The translations under genes were made by a program, and so were the position numbers. Below the pieces are notes generated by a model that saw nothing but the letters and a program-made list of their open reading frames with translations, was not told the DNA's origin and ran no database searches. A stretch of DNA of 64,000 nucleotides from Chloroflexota bacterium (GTDB lineage Bacteria > Chloroflexota > Anaerolineae > Anaerolineales > Villigracilaceae), in NCBI GenBank assembly GCA_016234485.1, contig JACRBL010000034.1, positions 1 to 64,000 of the forward strand. The letters are read 5' to 3'. The first letter of the stretch is position 1. Every line of letters starts with the position of its first letter. Below, piece by piece: positions 6,297 through 57,285 of the stretch.

Positions 6297-7259
6297 TTAC
6301 TTTCGACAGGCCAGCGCGACCCAGTCTTTCATCTGACGCTTGTCGGTCAAAACCAGACCTTTGGCGGACGCGGCCTCGATGACCTTTTCCGCCTGTTCGG
6401 CCAGGATGCCGCTCAGGATGATCTCGCCGCCCTCGTCAACGAGATCGGCCAACCCGCCGTCAAAAAGACGGATGATGATCGGAGCGAGGATGTTCGCCAC
6501 CACCAGCGGCGCAGACTTGTACACGAATTGTCCCGCCTTCACTTCGGCCACCGACCCCTGCCCGATGATGAACTCCTCCCCCACCTCGTTCTTGTCCGCG
6601 TTCTCGCGTGAGTTGACAACCGACTCCATGTCAATGTCCACGCCGAGGGCGGAGGCCGCGCCGAGTTTAAGCGCCGCGATGGACAGGATGCCCGAGCCGC
6701 AACCGACGTCGATCACAACAGACGATGGACGATGGACGATGGACGGTTCATGGTCAGTCGTCTGCGGTCTATTGTCAAAGAATTTCTCGATGAGTTCAAG
6801 ACACAATTGCGTCGTCGGATGCGTGCCCGTTCCAAACGCCATGCCAGGATCGATCTTGATCGGGATGCGTTTCGGCTCAGGCGAATCCATCCACGCGGGG
6901 ACAATCATCAACCGCTTGCCGATCGGGATGGGTTTGTAACTTTGCTTCCAGGCTTCCATCCAGTTTTGGTCGGCGATCTGCTTATACGTCGGCGCGGGGA
7001 GCGGTTGGATCATGCCGAGATAGAACAACGCCTCTTCCAACTTCTGACGCGTCTCTTCGACCTGATCATTCATCTCCAGATACGCGCGCACGTTGACGGG
7101 TCCCACCGCGACGCCTTCGTTTTCTTCATCCAAAAATTTGACGCCCGTGCTTTCGGTCACAACGCCATTCGGCGCGAAACGCGCCAGCACATCAGCCACC
7201 GCTTCCGCAAGTTCACCGTCTACGAGCAGAGAGATTTCTAGCCAGGTTGTGTTAGTCAT
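6297..7259 (-). CDS. prmA: ribosomal protein L11 methyltransferase PrmA
   Basis: 320 residues. The N-terminal L11-binding domain is followed by a class I SAM methyltransferase with motif I VIDVGCGSGILSIAALKLG and the later VVANILAPIIIRL motif. It trimethylates L11 and often ends the hrcA-grpE-dnaK-dnaJ operon, as here. Oddity: directly before motif I, residues about 161-180 are a stretch (RPQTTDHEPSIVHRPSSV) with no family counterpart. It is encoded by a short-word repeat (6719-6777) inserted in frame. Confidence 0.93.
   Translation of the reverse strand: MTNTTWLEISLLVDGELAEAVADVLARFAPNGVVTESTGVKFLDEENEGVAVGPVNVRAYLEMNDQVEETRQKLEEALFYLGMIQPLPAPTYKQIADQNWMEAWKQSYKPIPIGKRLMIVPAWMDSPEPKRIPIKIDPGMAFGTGTHPTTQLCLELIEKFFDNRPQTTDHEPSIVHRPSSVVIDVGCGSGILSIAALKLGAASALGVDIDMESVVNSRENADKNEVGEEFIIGQGSVAEVKAGQFVYKSAPLVVANILAPIIIRLFDGGLADLVDEGGEIILSGILAEQAEKVIEAASAKGLVLTDKRQMKDWVALACRK
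6719..6777 (-). repeat. short-word repeat inserted in frame in prmA
   Basis: Three copies of a 7-base GGACGAT unit followed by GGTCAGTCGTCTGCGG-type words. The block adds roughly 15-17 residues in the linker before SAM motif I. Its word structure matches intergenic filler elsewhere, not coding sequence. Confidence 0.75.
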
Positions 7260-9057: not shown

Positions 9058-10932
<1,875 letters not shown>

Positions 10933-51257: not shown

Positions 51258-54032
51258 ATGGCCCGAAGAAAAGAAGACCCCGCCGAACTTTATGCCAAAA
51301 TCGCCAGCCTCGAAAACCTGGTTCCCGAACTGGGCGAGGACGTGGTGTACCAAAAAATCGCCGAACTGCGCGCCCGCATTCAGACCATCACGGCCAGCAA
51401 TCTAAGCGCGGCCAGCGCAAAAGGGCGCGGACGGGCCGTGGGCCGCGACCAACGCCTCGAGAGCGGCGACTCGAGCGTGGCCGTCCAGGGGGATGTGAAC
51501 GACAGTTCCATCATCCACGCCCAGACGGTGGTGCTGGCCGACCGCTTCTGGCGCGGACTGAAAGCGGCCCTGCCCACCCCAGACTTAAAGCAGGCAACGT
51601 CGGCCTACCTCGCCTACCTCGTTGACCGTCACAACTACCTCAGTCTCAAAGGAATGGGCGTCTCGGACCGCGTGCCACTGCGGCTGGCCCTGCTCGACGT
51701 GTACGTGCCGCTCAAGGCGCGGCTCGAACTGCCCGAGGGCGAAACCTGGCAACGCGAACTCAGCCTGGCGGGCCGCGAACCTACCAACGAAGATCTAACT
51801 CCCCTGCGCCTCAGCGACCCCCTGTCTGTATTGGATATCCTCGCCTCACACTCTGGCGTGATCGTTCTGGGCGACCCTGGCGCGGGCAAAACCACCTTTT
51901 TGAAATATATCGCGCTCTGCCTGGCGCGCGGCGATGGCGAAAAACTCGGCTTGGGCGAACGATTGCCCATCCTCATGCCGCTGGCCGCTTACGCCAACGC
52001 TTTGCAGGTGGAAGACATCCGCCTCGACGACTTCATCGCCGAATATTTTTCCGATATCGGCTCCGACACGTCCATCGGCCCCATGCTTGAAGAGGCCCTG
52101 CGCGCGGGCCGCGCCCTCATTCTGCTCGACGGGCTCGACGAGGTGCGCGACCTCAATTTACGCAACACCGTGGTCGAGCGCGTGGTGGATTTTTACGCCT
52201 TCCATCGCCGACCGGGCAACAAGTTTGTCATCACCAGCCGCATCGTGGGTTATCGCGCCGTGCGTCCCTCCGCGGACGACCTGGTGGAGTGCACGCTCGT
52301 GGACTTCGACGACGCCGAGATCGAAGACTTCGTCCAACGCTGGACGATCGCCATCGAAAAACAGGCGCAGGGCAACACCGCCGTGGCGCGCGGCGACGCC
52401 GAACAGGACCGGCGCGAACTCCTGGACGCGGTCTACCAAAACAGCGGGGTGCGGAGGCTGGCATCCACGCCTCTGCTCTTGACCATTCTCGCGTTGATGA
52501 AGCGACAGGGCGTGAGCCTGCCCGAGCGCCGCGTTCAACTTTACGACCAATATGTGACGACCCTCCTCTCGACCTGGAACCGCGCCCGCTCCCTGAGCGG
52601 ACGTTCCCCCAGCCGCGACCTCGACGAACTACAGACCGTGAGCGTCCTCGCGCCGCTAGCCTTGTGGATGCACGAGGTCAGCCCGGGCGTGGGCCTGGTG
52701 AAGCGCGAAGACCTGGGCCGCAAACTGGAGGAACTCTTCAAAGAGCAGGGACACCCCTCCCCGTCCAATGCGGCGCGCCAGTTTTTGCAGGATGTGCGCG
52801 AGCACGCGGCCATCCTGCTCGAGCGCGGACCGGGCGAATATGGCTTCATCCATCTCACGTTTGAAGAATATCTCTCGGCGGTGGCGATCGCGCTCAAAGG
52901 ACAGGGCAACCCCGAAACCATCGCGGACATCCTGCTCAAGCACGTGGGCGAGCAGGCCTGGCGCGAAGTGACCCTGCTCACCATCGGCTTCCTCGGCGTG
53001 CGGCAACAACTCTCGAAAGTGGCAGGCGAGGTGGTGGAACGGCTGGCGAACGCGCGTGGCGGCGCGCCGGGCGAGTCCATCGTCCTGGCGGGCGACGCGG
53101 TGCTGGATACCTGGCCCGCGGGTGTGCCGCTCCAAAGCAAGGACCGCGTCGTGCAGGCGTTGGCGCCCTCCATGCAGAATCCCGACGTCCATCCAGATTT
53201 GAGGCGTCGCGCTGGACTGCTCCTCGGCCGACTCAGCTGGCGTCCGCCTGATATTGATCGGTTTATGGAAGTGGCGGCGGGAAGTTTTCTCTACGGTACG
53301 AAAAAAGAAAAATCGGAAACGCCCGAACGATTCTGGATCGGCAAGTATCCCATCACCAACGCGCAGTACGCGCGCTTCGTGCAGGCCGGCGGCTACCAGA
53401 CGCGCGCCCTGTGGAGCGAAAATGGCTGGGCCTGGCGCACGGGCAAATATGACGAGCGCACGCTCGAGACCGTGGACCGCGACTGGCTGGATCATCGTCC
53501 TCCACCGCGACGCAACGCGCCGTATTTCTGGCACAGCATCGAATTGGGGAATCCCATCTTCCCTGTGGTCGGACTCACCTGGTACGAGGCCGAGGCTTAT
53601 TGCAACTGGCTCGCGAAAAATATGGTGGCCGTACCAGAGGGCTACACCGTGCGCCTGCCGACCGGCCAGGAATGGGAACATGCCGCGCGCGGCGCGAAGG
53701 GACGCGAATATCCCTGGGGCGACGAGTTCGATAAAACCGCCGCCAACACCTGGGACAGCGATCCGGCGGATTCGGGTCTGGGCGGCACGACGGCGGTCTG
53801 CACCTTCCCGCAGGGAGTCAGTCCGCTGGGCGTGTGGGACATGAGCGGCAATGTTTGGGAATGGACGAACTCGTGGTACGATGAAGACAAGCGTTACCGC
53901 GTGGTGCGCGGCGGTTCGTGGATCGGCTATCAATGGTTCGCGCGTTCCACGTTTTGCAACTGGTCCATCCCGTTGATGTTCAACGACGATCTCGGTTTCC
54001 GCGTAGTGATTGCCCCGCAGGAAAAAGCGTAA
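51258..54032 (+). CDS. NACHT-type STAND NTPase with C-terminal FGE-like domain
   Basis: 924 residues. A helical N-terminus (about 1-50) and a Gly/Asn-rich beta-forming motif (GDSSVAVQGDVNDSSII, 70-86) precede the NACHT NTPase: Walker A GDPGAGKTT (205-213), Walker B LILLDGLDEV (287-296), sensor FVITSRIVGY. A helical repeat region follows (about 450-660), containing GFIHLTFEEYLSAVAIA, then an FGE/SUMF1-like domain (about 664-920: YGTKKEKSETPERFWIGKYP, RLPTGQEWEHAARGAKGREY, VWDMSGNVWEW, RVVRGGSW, GFRVV). NACHT proteins act as oligomerising switches in immunity and cell death; the FGE-like part is probably a ligand sensor. A partner with a similar N-terminal motif lies 77 bases downstream. Confidence 0.9.
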   Translation: MARRKEDPAELYAKIASLENLVPELGEDVVYQKIAELRARIQTITASNLSAASAKGRGRAVGRDQRLESGDSSVAVQGDVNDSSIIHAQTVVLADRFWRGLKAALPTPDLKQATSAYLAYLVDRHNYLSLKGMGVSDRVPLRLALLDVYVPLKARLELPEGETWQRELSLAGREPTNEDLTPLRLSDPLSVLDILASHSGVIVLGDPGAGKTTFLKYIALCLARGDGEKLGLGERLPILMPLAAYANALQVEDIRLDDFIAEYFSDIGSDTSIGPMLEEALRAGRALILLDGLDEVRDLNLRNTVVERVVDFYAFHRRPGNKFVITSRIVGYRAVRPSADDLVECTLVDFDDAEIEDFVQRWTIAIEKQAQGNTAVARGDAEQDRRELLDAVYQNSGVRRLASTPLLLTILALMKRQGVSLPERRVQLYDQYVTTLLSTWNRARSLSGRSPSRDLDELQTVSVLAPLALWMHEVSPGVGLVKREDLGRKLEELFKEQGHPSPSNAARQFLQDVREHAAILLERGPGEYGFIHLTFEEYLSAVAIALKGQGNPETIADILLKHVGEQAWREVTLLTIGFLGVRQQLSKVAGEVVERLANARGGAPGESIVLAGDAVLDTWPAGVPLQSKDRVVQALAPSMQNPDVHPDLRRRAGLLLGRLSWRPPDIDRFMEVAAGSFLYGTKKEKSETPERFWIGKYPITNAQYARFVQAGGYQTRALWSENGWAWRTGKYDERTLETVDRDWLDHRPPPRRNAPYFWHSIELGNPIFPVVGLTWYEAEAYCNWLAKNMVAVPEGYTVRLPTGQEWEHAARGAKGREYPWGDEFDKTAANTWDSDPADSGLGGTTAVCTFPQGVSPLGVWDMSGNVWEWTNSWYDEDKRYRVVRGGSWIGYQWFARSTFCNWSIPLMFNDDLGFRVVIAPQEKA
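53898..54014 (+). other. DGR variable-region-like C-terminus
   Basis: The last 38 codons encode RVVRGGSW, then about 22 residues rich in aromatic and small residues (IGYQWFARSTFCNWSIPLMF), then NDDLGFRVV. In diversity-generating retroelement targets the varied residues lie exactly between RGGSW and GFRV. Codons such as ATC, GGC, TAT, TTC, TCC and AAC are the kind produced from AAC/AAT template codons by adenine mutagenesis. No template repeat or reverse transcriptase is in the window. Confidence 0.55.
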
Positions 54033-54040
54033 CGCACACT

Positions 54041-54054
54041 TGCCCGGGCGGGCA
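54041..54054. promoter_or_regulatory. GC hairpin 9 bases after the NACHT stop
   Basis: TGCCC, GGGC loop, GGGCA (or a 6-bp stem with a 2-base loop). DGR targets often carry a GC hairpin just after the variable region; this could be one, or a simple spacer structure. Confidence 0.4.
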
Positions 54055-54109: not shown

Positions 54110-54526
54110 ATGGCGAAGAAAAATAAATCCGATCAAGACTCTGTTGGCCGCGACCGAATCGTTTCAGGCGGCGCGGGGAGCGTGGTCATCGGCGGGAACG
54201 CCACCAACAACACGATCATCGCGGGCGACAACAACCGCGTCAACGCCTCGTCCAAATTCAAGGAAATCTACCAGCAGGTGGACGAACGCCGCGATCTCAC
54301 CGGCAACGATAAGACCGATTTGAAATCTGAATTACAGGCTTTCGAGTCCGACGATAAGAAAGGCCCCGAAGCCAATGAGGGCTTCCTTGCCCAGCGTCTG
54401 CGTAATGTTAAGCGCATCGCGCCCGACATCCTCGAAGTGGCCACGGCCACCATCTTGAATCCTGTGGCAGGATTTGGGGTGATTGCCAAGAAGGTCGCAG
54501 AAAAGATGAAGGCAGAGGCGAAATAG
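54110..54526 (+). CDS. small partner of the NACHT protein, Gly/Asn motif plus helical C-terminus
   Basis: 138 residues. The N-terminus has VGRDRIVSGGAGSVVIGGN and NTIIAGDNNRV (about 12-42), resembling VGRDQRLESGDSSVAVQGDV in the NACHT protein upstream. The C-terminal half is helical: FKEIYQQVDERRDLTGNDK, FLAQRLRNVKRIAPDILEVA and an amphipathic ILNPVAGFGVIAKKVAEKM. This tail could insert in a membrane or bind a partner. I know this type of small protein from beside NACHT/TIR genes but no named function. The ATG at 54110 has AAAGGAG 8 bases upstream; the longer frame is rejected. Confidence 0.8.
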   Translation: MAKKNKSDQDSVGRDRIVSGGAGSVVIGGNATNNTIIAGDNNRVNASSKFKEIYQQVDERRDLTGNDKTDLKSELQAFESDDKKGPEANEGFLAQRLRNVKRIAPDILEVATATILNPVAGFGVIAKKVAEKMKAEAK

Positions 54527-54741: not shown

Positions 54742-55674
54742 ATGCACCCTTCCCCCCTTCTTCTTCACATTCCCGATGGATTTCTAAGCATCATCGTCGC
54801 GGTCGTTTGTTGGGTTATCACCGCCAGCCTGCTGGCAATCGCCATCCGCAAAACGAATGAATCCCTGGGCGAAAAACAAATTCCCTTAATGGGCATCATG
54901 GCCGCCTTCATCTTCGCCGCGCAGATGATTAACTTCCCCGTCGCGGGCGGGACGTCCGGTCACTTGCTCGGCGGCGCGCTGGCGGCGATTCTGCTCGGAC
55001 CGTGGGCCGCCATGCTCGTGATGACGGCCGTCATCGCCGTGCAGGGCCTGCTCTTCCAGGACGGCGGACTCGTGGCGATGGGCGCCAACATCCTCAACAT
55101 GGGACTCATCACCGCCGCCATTGGCTACGGATTCCACCGCGCCGTTCTCACGCAGTCGCGCCGCGTCAAGTTGACCGTGGCGGGCCTCGCGGCCTGGACT
55201 TCGGTGATGGCGGGCGCGCTCGCCACCACGCTCCAACTCTGGTTGAGCGGCACAGCCAAACTCGGCATCATCCTGCCCGCCATGCTCACCGTCCACGCGT
55301 TGATTGGGTTGGGCGAAGCGTTCATCACCGTCGCGGCGCTCGGCTTCATCATGCAGACGCGTCCCGACCTGCTGGGCGAATCGTCCGCATCGGCGCTCGG
55401 CGGCAAGGGCTGGATTCTGGCGGGCATCGCCCTCACGATGATCGTCATCCTGCTCGCGCCGTTCGCCTCCACCAACCCCGACGGGCTGGAGCGCGTGGCT
55501 ACCGACCTGGGCTTCCTGCAAAGCGGACAGTCCGCGCCCTTTGAAATTATCCCCGATTACACCGTGCCGATCCTGGGCGGGACGCCGCTCTCCACCGTCG
55601 TAGCGGGAGTCATCGGCGTGATCGTGGTGGGGCTGGTCATCGGCGCAACGGCAATTGGGTTGAGGAAGAAATAA
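54742..55674 (+). CDS. cbiM: cobalt/nickel ECF transporter S component CbiM with PDGLE domain
   Basis: 310 residues with about seven to eight membrane helices. Substrate-binding motifs are HIPDGFLS near the N-terminus and GGTSGHLLGGALAAILLGPW. The C-terminal quarter (STNPDGLERVATDLGF plus a final helix) is the CbiN/PDGLE-like part fused on. It takes up Co2+ or Ni2+ with CbiQ and CbiO downstream. Oddity: family members start MHIPDG, but here 7-8 residues (MHPSPLLL) precede HIPDG. The metal is not decided by sequence. No cobalamin riboswitch is seen upstream. Confidence 0.93.
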   Translation: MHPSPLLLHIPDGFLSIIVAVVCWVITASLLAIAIRKTNESLGEKQIPLMGIMAAFIFAAQMINFPVAGGTSGHLLGGALAAILLGPWAAMLVMTAVIAVQGLLFQDGGLVAMGANILNMGLITAAIGYGFHRAVLTQSRRVKLTVAGLAAWTSVMAGALATTLQLWLSGTAKLGIILPAMLTVHALIGLGEAFITVAALGFIMQTRPDLLGESSASALGGKGWILAGIALTMIVILLAPFASTNPDGLERVATDLGFLQSGQSAPFEIIPDYTVPILGGTPLSTVVAGVIGVIVVGLVIGATAIGLRKK

Positions 55675-55703
55675 AACGCAAAACGTAAAACGTGAAGCGT
55701 AAT
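55672..55703. repeat. short-word repeat, AAAACGCAAAACGTAAAACG type
   Basis: AAAACG words with a 9-10 base period between cbiM and cbiQ, of the same style as 41750-41807. Confidence 0.65.
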
Positions 55704-55707
55704 CATT

Positions 55708-56526
55708 ATGCATGCAAATCTCTTTGATCGTTATCACCACACTGAAGGGCCTCTCCATAGACTCGAAGCGCGCGTCAAAGTTGTTTTGACGGTTGCGTTC
55801 ATCGTCTCGAACGCGTTGTTACCCGATGGCGCGTGGACGGCTTTTGGGCTGGGATGGCTTCTCGTTCTGGCGGCCAATGCGCTTTCGCTGCTTGGGTTGG
55901 GCTTCACGCTCAAACGCTCGCTCATCGCGCTTCCGTTTGCGCTGGCCGCGATCTCATCCATTTTTTCCACGCCGGGGAATCCACTTTCCTCGTTTCCATT
56001 TCTCGGCATGGAACTCATCGTCACCGACGCGGGTCTGCTTCGGTTTGCCAGCATCCTCGTCCGCTCGTGGCTTTCGGTGCAGGCCGCCATTTTGCTCGTG
56101 GCCGTGACGACCTTTCCCGATCTCATCCACGCGCTCGAACATTTGCGCGCGCCGAAGATCATCACCACCGTCATCGCGTTTTTGTATCGCTATCTTTTCG
56201 TGCTGAGCGACGAGGTCATCCGTCTGCTGAGGGCCAGGCAAGCGCGTAGCGCGACCTTGCCCCCCTCCGTCTCCCCCCATTTTCCGCGGAAATGGGGGGA
56301 GAGAAAGAGGGGGGTGGTGTGGCGCGCCAAAGTCGCGGGGAACATGGTCGGTCAACTCTTTTTGCGAAGTTACGAACGAAGCGACCGCATCTACAATGCC
56401 ATGCTGGCGCGCGGCTATCAGGGACAGATCCGCACCCTGCATCCGCACACGCTCACGCGCCGCGATTGGACGATCGGCGCGCTGACGGTTTTGCTCATCC
56501 TATCTCTGCAATTGATCGGACGTTAA
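55708..56526 (+). CDS. cbiQ: ECF transporter transmembrane component CbiQ
   Basis: 272 residues with about five membrane helices. It starts with HTEGPLHRLEARVKVVLTVA (DPRxK-like region) and carries the coupling motif YNAMLARGYQG; the first EcfT coupling helix contains the arginines around RLLRARQAR. Oddity: residues about 185-202 (LPPSVSPHFPRKWGERKRGV) come from a C/G-tract hairpin repeat inserted in the cytoplasmic loop between coupling helices. cbiO begins immediately after the stop, so the two are translationally coupled. Confidence 0.9.
   Translation: MHANLFDRYHHTEGPLHRLEARVKVVLTVAFIVSNALLPDGAWTAFGLGWLLVLAANALSLLGLGFTLKRSLIALPFALAAISSIFSTPGNPLSSFPFLGMELIVTDAGLLRFASILVRSWLSVQAAILLVAVTTFPDLIHALEHLRAPKIITTVIAFLYRYLFVLSDEVIRLLRARQARSATLPPSVSPHFPRKWGERKRGVVWRAKVAGNMVGQLFLRSYERSDRIYNAMLARGYQGQIRTLHPHTLTRRDWTIGALTVLLILSLQLIGR
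56260..56314 (+). repeat. C/G-tract hairpin repeat inserted in frame in cbiQ
   Basis: CCCCCCTC and CCCCCCATTTTCC pair with GGAAATGGGGGG and GAGGGGGG. It is the same kind of element as 30757-30850. Confidence 0.8.
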
Positions 56527-57285
56527 ATGCCCATCACGCACCCCTCTTTACCAGTCACTATGCCCGAAACCTGCGACGGCGATATTTTGCGCGTGCGCGA
56601 TTTGAAATTTAATTATCCCGACGGACACGCGGCATTGCACGGCGTTTCGTTCCAACTCTGCGAAGGCGACAAGGCCGCGCTGGTGGGGCCGAACGGCGCG
56701 GGCAAATCCACGCTGATGTTGCACCTGAACGGAATTTTGGAGGGCCGCGGCGAGATCGAAGTGATGGGCCTGCGCCTCACGCGCGACAATCTGCCGACCA
56801 TCCGCTCGATGGTGGGCCTCGTCTTCCAAAATCCCGACGATCAACTCTTCTCGCCAACGGTGTTCGAGGACGTGGCCTTCGGCCCGCTTCACATGGGCCT
56901 GCCCGAGGACGAAGTCCGCGTCCGCGTGACCGAGGCCTTGGCCGCCGTCCGAATGAGCGCGTACGCCGACAGGTTGTCGCATCACCTGAGCGTCGGCGAA
57001 AAGAAGCGCATCTCGATTGCGACGGTTCTCTCGATGCGCCCGTCCCTGCTGGTGTTGGACGAACCGTCCGCAGGTCTCGACCCGCGCGCGCGGCGGACGT
57101 TGATTCATTTATTGCGCGACCTGCCGATCACGATGCTCGTCTCCACGCACGATATGGCGCTGGTGAAAGAATTGTTCCCGCGCACGATCATCATGGACGA
57201 GGGTCGCATCGTCGCGGATGGGTTGACGATGGAGATTTTGGACGATGAGAAGTTGCTGGAGGCGCATGGACTCGAGAGAGGGTAG
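56527..57285 (+). CDS. cbiO: ECF transporter ATPase CbiO
   Basis: 252 residues. Walker A VGPNGAGKSTLMLHL, Q-loop VGLVFQNPDDQLFSPTVFED, signature LSVGEKKRISIATV, Walker B LLVLDEPSAGLDP and H-loop LVSTHDMALV are all present. It powers CbiM-CbiQ. LSVGE instead of LSGGQ is a common CbiO variant. The ATG directly follows the cbiQ stop. Confidence 0.96.
   Translation: MPITHPSLPVTMPETCDGDILRVRDLKFNYPDGHAALHGVSFQLCEGDKAALVGPNGAGKSTLMLHLNGILEGRGEIEVMGLRLTRDNLPTIRSMVGLVFQNPDDQLFSPTVFEDVAFGPLHMGLPEDEVRVRVTEALAAVRMSAYADRLSHHLSVGEKKRISIATVLSMRPSLLVLDEPSAGLDPRARRTLIHLLRDLPITMLVSTHDMALVKELFPRTIIMDEGRIVADGLTMEILDDEKLLEAHGLERG

What the first reader, a model, noticed from the sequence alone, without database searches (positions are those of the whole stretch)
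53898..54054. The FGE-like domain ends like a diversity-generating retroelement target
RVVRGGSW, about 22 unusual residues, then DDLGFRVV is the layout of DGR variable regions in C-type-lectin/FGE-fold proteins. The variable positions here hold Ile, Gly, Tyr, Trp, Phe, Ser, Thr, Cys, Asn, Leu and Met rather than the Asn-rich template type. A small GC hairpin follows 9 bases after the stop. A diversified sensor on an NLR-like switch would be an adaptable recognition system. No reverse transcriptase, Avd gene or template repeat is visible in the window, so a remote DGR would have to act in trans, or the region is a frozen relic.
Basis: partly seen in the sequence, partly recalled or inferred. 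Interest (0 to 1): 0.75.

Follow-up and report, generated by a model that had tools for sequence, protein, structure and literature searches.

The report
Frozen sensor face of bacterial NLR-like protein
The gene looks like the target of a bacterial hypermutation machine, and its closest cousins really are such targets, but in this lineage the machine is absent and the normally hypervariable face is one of the best-conserved parts of the protein, as if an adaptable immune-type sensor had been fixed on one ligand.

Summary
The motif is real: residues 881-917 (53898-54008) of a 924-aa NACHT-FGE protein (51258-54032). It is the ordinary C-terminus of the FGE-sulfatase fold and is not a diversified region here. 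Across 37 orthologs (66-83% identical, Anaerolineales) it is among the best-conserved stretches (entropy 0.25 against 0.71 for the rest of the FGE domain; 13 of 21 residues invariant). The genome holds no DGR reverse transcriptase and no template: a search allowing any TR consistent with this VR finds only the gene itself, while the same search finds the TR in a positive-control genome. The hairpin is unremarkable. In the same family, NACHT-FGE homologs up to 58% identical are genuine DGR targets (TR/VR mismatches mostly at TR adenines), and their VR is exactly this stretch. The positions that are mutable Asn codons in those templates are the most conserved here (P = 0.001). All 37 ortholog loci carry a TCAD2 gene directly downstream and none has an RT. 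Best reading: a two-gene STAND sensor/adaptor system with fixed specificity, probably derived from DGR-diversified ancestors. DGR activity here is refuted; the 'frozen' alternative is partly supported, though the region is selected, not decaying.

The parts
51258..54032 (+). NACHT-FGE protein, 924 aa (STAND/NLR-like sensor)
   Evidence: ORF; Pfam; about 48 of 152 family genomes have an ortholog at 66% identity or more
51435..51515 (+). N-terminal VGRD..SGDSSVAVQGD..SII motif (residues 60-86), similar to the N-terminus of the downstream TCAD2 protein; possible homotypic contact (inferred)
   Evidence: 37% identity over 27 aa, E 6e-5 for that single comparison; the TCAD2 N-terminus also matches NACHT-FGE proteins of related loci
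51858..52346 (+). NACHT NTPase domain (residues 201-363) with Walker A GDPGAGKT and Walker B LLDGLDE
   Evidence: Walker residues invariant or nearly so in 15 sequences
53262..54008 (+). FGE-sulfatase / C-type-lectin-fold domain (residues 669-917)
   Evidence: E 6e-52
53907..54002 (+). RGGSW..GFR stretch (residues 884-915), homologous position by position to the VR of DGR targets in relatives; fixed here
54110..54526 (+). TCAD2-domain protein, 138 aa, second gene of the unit; present next to the sensor in all 37 ortholog loci
   Evidence: PF19971 E 1e-10
54742..57285 (+). Co/Ni ECF-type transporter genes (cbiM/cbiQ/cbiO-like), conserved downstream neighbourhood; probably not part of the system
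   Evidence: in 21-22 of 37 ortholog loci; names from sequence resemblance, not run against Pfam

Best explanation
The stretch is the ligand-facing end of a non-catalytic FGE (C-type-lectin fold) sensor domain on a NACHT-type STAND switch, which works with the TCAD2 protein encoded next door. It is not a DGR variable region in this organism: its residues are fixed by purifying selection, so the sensor most likely recognises one constant ligand, such as a conserved phage or host component. Ligand binding would license NACHT-driven oligomerisation, and the TCAD2 protein would be recruited through the related Gly/Asp-rich N-terminal segments of the two proteins. The lineage most likely descends from DGR-diversified sensors, lost the RT and template, and kept one useful variant. 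Shown: conservation, absence of RT and TR, DGR status of the cousins, gene pairing. Inferred: sensing, ligand type, oligomerisation, recruitment, and the direction of the change from diversified to fixed.
For: Conservation of residues 889-909: entropy 0.25 against 0.71 for the rest of the FGE domain and 0.53 for NACHT. In 190 conserved pairs the VR-equivalent is 89% identical against 73% for the preceding FGE part, and higher in 190 of 190; DGR-family pairs of equal body identity (82-84%) keep only 29-46%. 421 synonymous against 82 nonsynonymous codon differences in the 32 codons. The 11 positions that are Asn in the sister TR are the most conserved (7 invariant, permutation P = 0.0012). Template search negative with working positive control. 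DGR RT absent. Cousin DGR loci L155, L156, L157 and others with TR adenine signature. Tree: the conserved group is one clade inside a family of mostly DGR targets, one change between fixed and DGR rows. TCAD2 gene adjacent in 37 of 37 loci, and also beside the DGR-type homolog in L156, where the RT is reduced to a short remnant.
Against: No ligand, activity or phenotype is shown. Direction is not certain: the tree is rooted by midpoint, one relative without a detectable DGR (L202) lies near the conserved clade, support for the clade is moderate (SH-aLRT 89-93), and DGR capture of a non-DGR gene by cousins is possible. SF.NW..P in the stretch also occurs in EgtB, so some of these residues may simply be old FGE scaffold. 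The effector is unknown, no PADLOC model matches well, and the two AlphaFold models were of low confidence. The Gly/Asp-rich motif match is short.
Confidence: 0.6

Rival explanations
1. Never diversified: the conserved lineage keeps the original fixed FGE sensor, and its cousins were captured by DGRs independently. The system works as in the best explanation, but the history runs the other way.
For: SF.NW..P is shared with EgtB, a non-DGR FGE-fold enzyme. The tail GFRVVIAP is shared with L202, which has no RT or TR within the fetched 16 kb, while DGR targets carry the tail that is copied with the template. 'a'-type targets sit with two different partner target types, which would fit repeated capture.
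Against: Nearly all other branches around the clade hold DGR targets, so one or two losses are cheaper than several captures. L156 shows a locus in which the RT is already decayed, so loss does happen.
Confidence: 0.35
2. An active DGR target diversified in trans by a remote RT and template.
For: Layout identical to true VRs of cousins; trans action is reported for some DGR targets (PMC10907252).
Against: No RT of DGR type and no compatible template in the 94%-complete genome; conservation across species; relatives with complete-looking DGRs keep it fixed.
Confidence: 0.02
3. A housekeeping signalling role unrelated to defence (for example a sensor of an envelope or cofactor state), since the gene is conserved and often sits by the cobalt-transporter genes. 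Compatible with either history.
For: High conservation, shared chromosomal neighbourhood in about 21-22 of 37 loci; the adjoining genes in many relatives are a Fur-like regulator and a transporter; no PADLOC match.
Against: STAND-FGE is the architecture of predicted conflict systems (PMC8195603, PMC10907252); cousins are hypermutated, which suits recognition of changing antagonists; the gene is missing in about two thirds of the family's genomes.
Confidence: 0.3

Closest known systems
DGR-diversified STAND NTPase-FGE antigen sensors (Dore et al. 2024, PMC10907252, DGR 3 and DGR 6; Kaur et al. 2021, PMC8195603)
   Same: NACHT/STAND plus C-terminal FGE domain; position of the RGGSW..GFR stretch; relatives in the same family are such targets
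   Different: no RT, no TR, no variation; the presumed variable face is conserved in 37 orthologs
DGR 1 target of Thiohalocapsa PB-PSB1 (PMC10907252)
   Same: a target in which diversification is not observed
   Different: its VR still matches a TR in the same genome at all non-adenine sites; here no template exists and fixation spans about 48 genomes
Bacterial NACHT / Avs antiviral STAND proteins (as reviewed in PMC10907252)
   Same: STAND switch with C-terminal sensor
   Different: the sensor is an FGE/CLec domain, no fused nuclease effector recognised, TCAD2 partner in a separate gene; function untested
FGE-fold proteins such as SUMF2 (1y4j)
   Same: best solved-structure match by sequence
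   Different: fused to NACHT, intracellular bacterial context

Membership tests
Diversity-generating retroelement (target gene) | DGR-type reverse transcriptase in the genome | tested here: not met
   Only two RTs: group II intron maturase with HNH (C18) and UG/DRT-type (C48); genome 94.4% complete
Diversity-generating retroelement (target gene) | Template repeat differing from VR at template adenines | tested here: not met
   Pattern of every TR compatible with 53907-53999, up to 3 mismatches, matches only itself; control finds the TR in G069; best other BLAST hit 20 bases
Diversity-generating retroelement (target gene) | Hypervariable VR | tested here: not met
   VR-equivalent is among the most conserved stretches between species; within-population variation not testable here
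Diversity-generating retroelement (target gene) | Accessory Avd | tested here: not met
   Only hit above the bAvd cut-off is an S23-type four-helix protein (TIGR02436 111 bits against 39.8 for the Avd equivalog with cut-off 80), no RT beside it
Diversity-generating retroelement (target gene) | Hairpin after the VR (not present in all DGRs) | tested here: not met
   z 0.02 as RNA, -1.07 as DNA; stretch after the stop not conserved
FGE-sulfatase fold (PF03781) | Match above the Pfam gathering score | tested here: met
   177 bits against 23.3
Catalytic formylglycine-generating enzyme | Two active-site cysteines between GGS[WY] and GFR | tested here: not met
   Only one Cys (C900) in that stretch and it is not invariant; position of the enzyme's cysteines is from general knowledge
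STAND NTPase, NACHT clade | NACHT match with intact Walker A and B | tested here: met
   47.8 bits against 26.7; Walker residues conserved
TCAD2 (PF19971) partner | Pfam match and conserved gene pairing | tested here: met
   41.9 bits against 27; 37 of 37 loci
Known anti-phage defence system (PADLOC) | Strong match to a PADLOC model | tested here: not met
   Best matches are generic ATPase stretches, E 0.004
Anti-phage defence | Protection against phage | not testable with these tools
   needs a bench experiment

The most novel reading that the evidence does not exclude
A hypermutable NLR-like immune sensor was converted into a fixed, vertically inherited innate receptor: the DGR was lost, one variant of the antigen-binding face became fixed and has been held by purifying selection across dozens of species, together with its TCAD2 partner, while sister lineages keep hypermutating the same residues.
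Probability: 0.45. Interest if true: 0.7.

Novelty: new variant of a known kind. Interest (0 to 1): 0.5.

Why it matters
DGR-diversified STAND-FGE proteins are proposed antigen sensors with unknown ligands. A sister lineage in which the same binding face is fixed gives a practical way in: one constant sensor, one constant partner, many orthologs, so the ligand should be a conserved molecule that can be looked for. It also makes the passage between adaptive-type and innate-type recognition in bacteria testable by comparing fixed and hypermutating sisters.

Tried and rejected
Trans-acting DGR: rejected by RT, template and conservation tests. Avd-like hit on C57: rejected as an ordinary S23-type four-helix protein. 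RTs on C18 and C48: rejected as DGR RTs by family matches. Hairpin as DGR signal: no better than shuffles and not conserved. Active formylglycine-generating enzyme: only one, non-invariant Cys in the place of two. Codon argument that the fixed residues derive from AAY template codons: 10 of 11 codons at the TR-Asn positions end in C or T and most residues are reachable from Asn codons, but FGE-fold scaffold residues could give this too, so I do not rely on it. AlphaFold2 of the FGE domain and of the whole protein: mean pLDDT 38 and 57, not used, so no fold search was made. TCAD2 literature: no relevant paper in the library.

Full report
What is there. The window belongs to a 4.46-Mb, 94%-complete genome; the closest named relatives are Anaerolineales MAGs of the Chloroflexota. 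The ORF 51258-54032 encodes 924 aa with a NACHT NTPase (residues 201-363) and a C-terminal FGE-sulfatase domain (669-917). The next gene, 54110-54526, encodes a TCAD2-domain protein.

Is the motif evidence of a DGR? Not alone. RGGS[WYF] followed by about 25 residues and GFR is the normal end of the FGE fold: two other FGE proteins of the same genome have it, and solved non-DGR proteins align over it.

Machinery. Two RTs exist in the genome: a group II intron maturase with an HNH domain on C18 and a UG/DRT-type RT on C48. Bordetella phage Brt, used as a query, finds only the C18 enzyme, at E 6e-7. A bAvd hit on C57 scores far better as a TIGR02436/PF05635 four-helix protein, and its neighbours are ordinary genes. 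A DNA search with the VR region finds no second copy. A stricter test uses the rule that a template may differ from its VR only where the template has A: writing C as A/C, G as A/G and T as A/T gives a 93-base pattern; with up to three mismatches it matches only the gene itself. The same construction from the VR of a true DGR target in relative G069 finds its template.

Variation. 37 distinct orthologs (66-83% identical) were aligned. The 21 'variable' residues have mean entropy 0.25 bits, with 13 of 21 invariant; the preceding FGE part has 0.71, NACHT 0.53. Over 190 ortholog pairs the VR-equivalent is 89% identical against 73% for the preceding FGE part, higher in every pair. At codon level there are 421 synonymous and 82 nonsynonymous differences from the window in 32 codons. 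This is purifying selection, the opposite of DGR action.

The cousins are DGR targets. A search of 152 genomes of the same family with Brt gives 47 genomes with matches at 1e-12 or better. Fetching the NACHT-FGE homologs beside these RTs shows classical loci. In L155 (G069) a homolog 56-58% identical to the window protein has a TR 7094-7214 and a VR 10210-10330 with 22 of 24 mismatches at TR adenines; L156 (58%) has 14 of 16; L157 (41%) 18 of 18; many others likewise. The VR is exactly the RGGSW..GFR stretch, and the sister TR (RGGSWNNNSRNARCANRNRNIPDNFNNNIGFR) aligns to the window (RGGSWIGYQWFARSTFCNWSIPLMFNDDLGFR) without gaps. DGR-family pairs with 82-84% body identity keep only 29-46% in the VR, a positive control for the conservation test. 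The 11 positions that are Asn in that template are the best conserved in the window's lineage (mean entropy 0.15, 7 invariant; 0.12% of random draws of 11 FGE residues are as conserved).

Relatives with both. At least seven genomes (G026, G029, G030, G031, G047, G114, G143) carry the conserved ortholog and a DGR with TR/VR adenine signature elsewhere; the ortholog's stretch is still the conserved one. Machinery in the same cell therefore does not diversify it.

Gene pairing and place. All 37 conserved-clade loci have the TCAD2 gene immediately downstream on the same strand; 21-22 also share the cbiM/Q/O-like genes further on; none has an RT. The sensor (67-83%) is better conserved than its partner (39-71% in the aligned conserved-clade set). 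The DGR-type homolog in L156 also has the TCAD2 gene, and only a short RT remnant between its two targets. The N-termini of the two window proteins share a short VGRD..SG..SV..G....II segment, and the TCAD2 N-terminus also matches NACHT-FGE proteins of related loci, which suggests, without proof, a homotypic contact of the effector-associated-domain kind described by Kaur et al. (PMC8195603).

Direction of change. Trees built without the VR columns put the conserved group as one clade (SH-aLRT 89-93) inside a family of mostly DGR targets, with L155/L156 and the DGR homolog L203 among the nearest sisters. One change separates fixed from DGR rows. Loss is the cheaper reading, but L202 (59%, no DGR found within 16 kb, tail GFRVVIAP as in the conserved clade) and the partial resemblance to EgtB keep 'never diversified, cousins captured by DGRs' open. 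I put loss at about 0.6 against 0.35.

Mechanism. Most likely a STAND switch: the non-catalytic FGE face binds a constant ligand, NACHT assembles, TCAD2 relays. Only the anatomy, conservation and pairing are shown; ligand, output and defence role are inferred from the class (PMC10907252, PMC8195603). A housekeeping role is a serious rival because of the stable chromosomal place and the lack of any PADLOC match.

Comparison. DGR-diversified NACHT/nSTAND-FGE sensors are known (PMC10907252; PMC8195603). In PB-PSB1 a non-varying target (DGR 1) still matches a template. I found no paper in the library describing a deeply conserved, DGR-free sister lineage with a fixed face; absence from this library is weak evidence of novelty.

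Noticed in passing
L155, L157, L158, L159, L160, L162, L163, L165-L170, L172, L175-L177, L186, L187, L205: The family is rich in DGR loci with NACHT-FGE targets, often two targets flanking RT and TR; 47 of 152 genomes have a Brt-like RT.
   Followed up: partly
L156 2762-9712 and 6422-6553: DGR locus with TR and two targets but only a short RT remnant, and a TGA just after GFR in one VR (a non-adenine change): a decaying or trans-served DGR.
   Followed up: partly
L002 1309-2937 (G000:C48): UG21/UG9-like defence reverse transcriptase (DRT class) in the window's genome.
   Followed up: no
L001 1228-3060 (G000:C18): Group II intron maturase with HNH endonuclease.
   Followed up: no
L202 6762-9572: 59% homolog in another family of the order without detectable DGR and without TCAD2; its C-terminal stretch differs strongly from the conserved clade.
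   Followed up: partly
L100 4107-6764: Ortholog broken into several frames in MAG CFX11, probably sequencing errors in that assembly.
   Followed up: no
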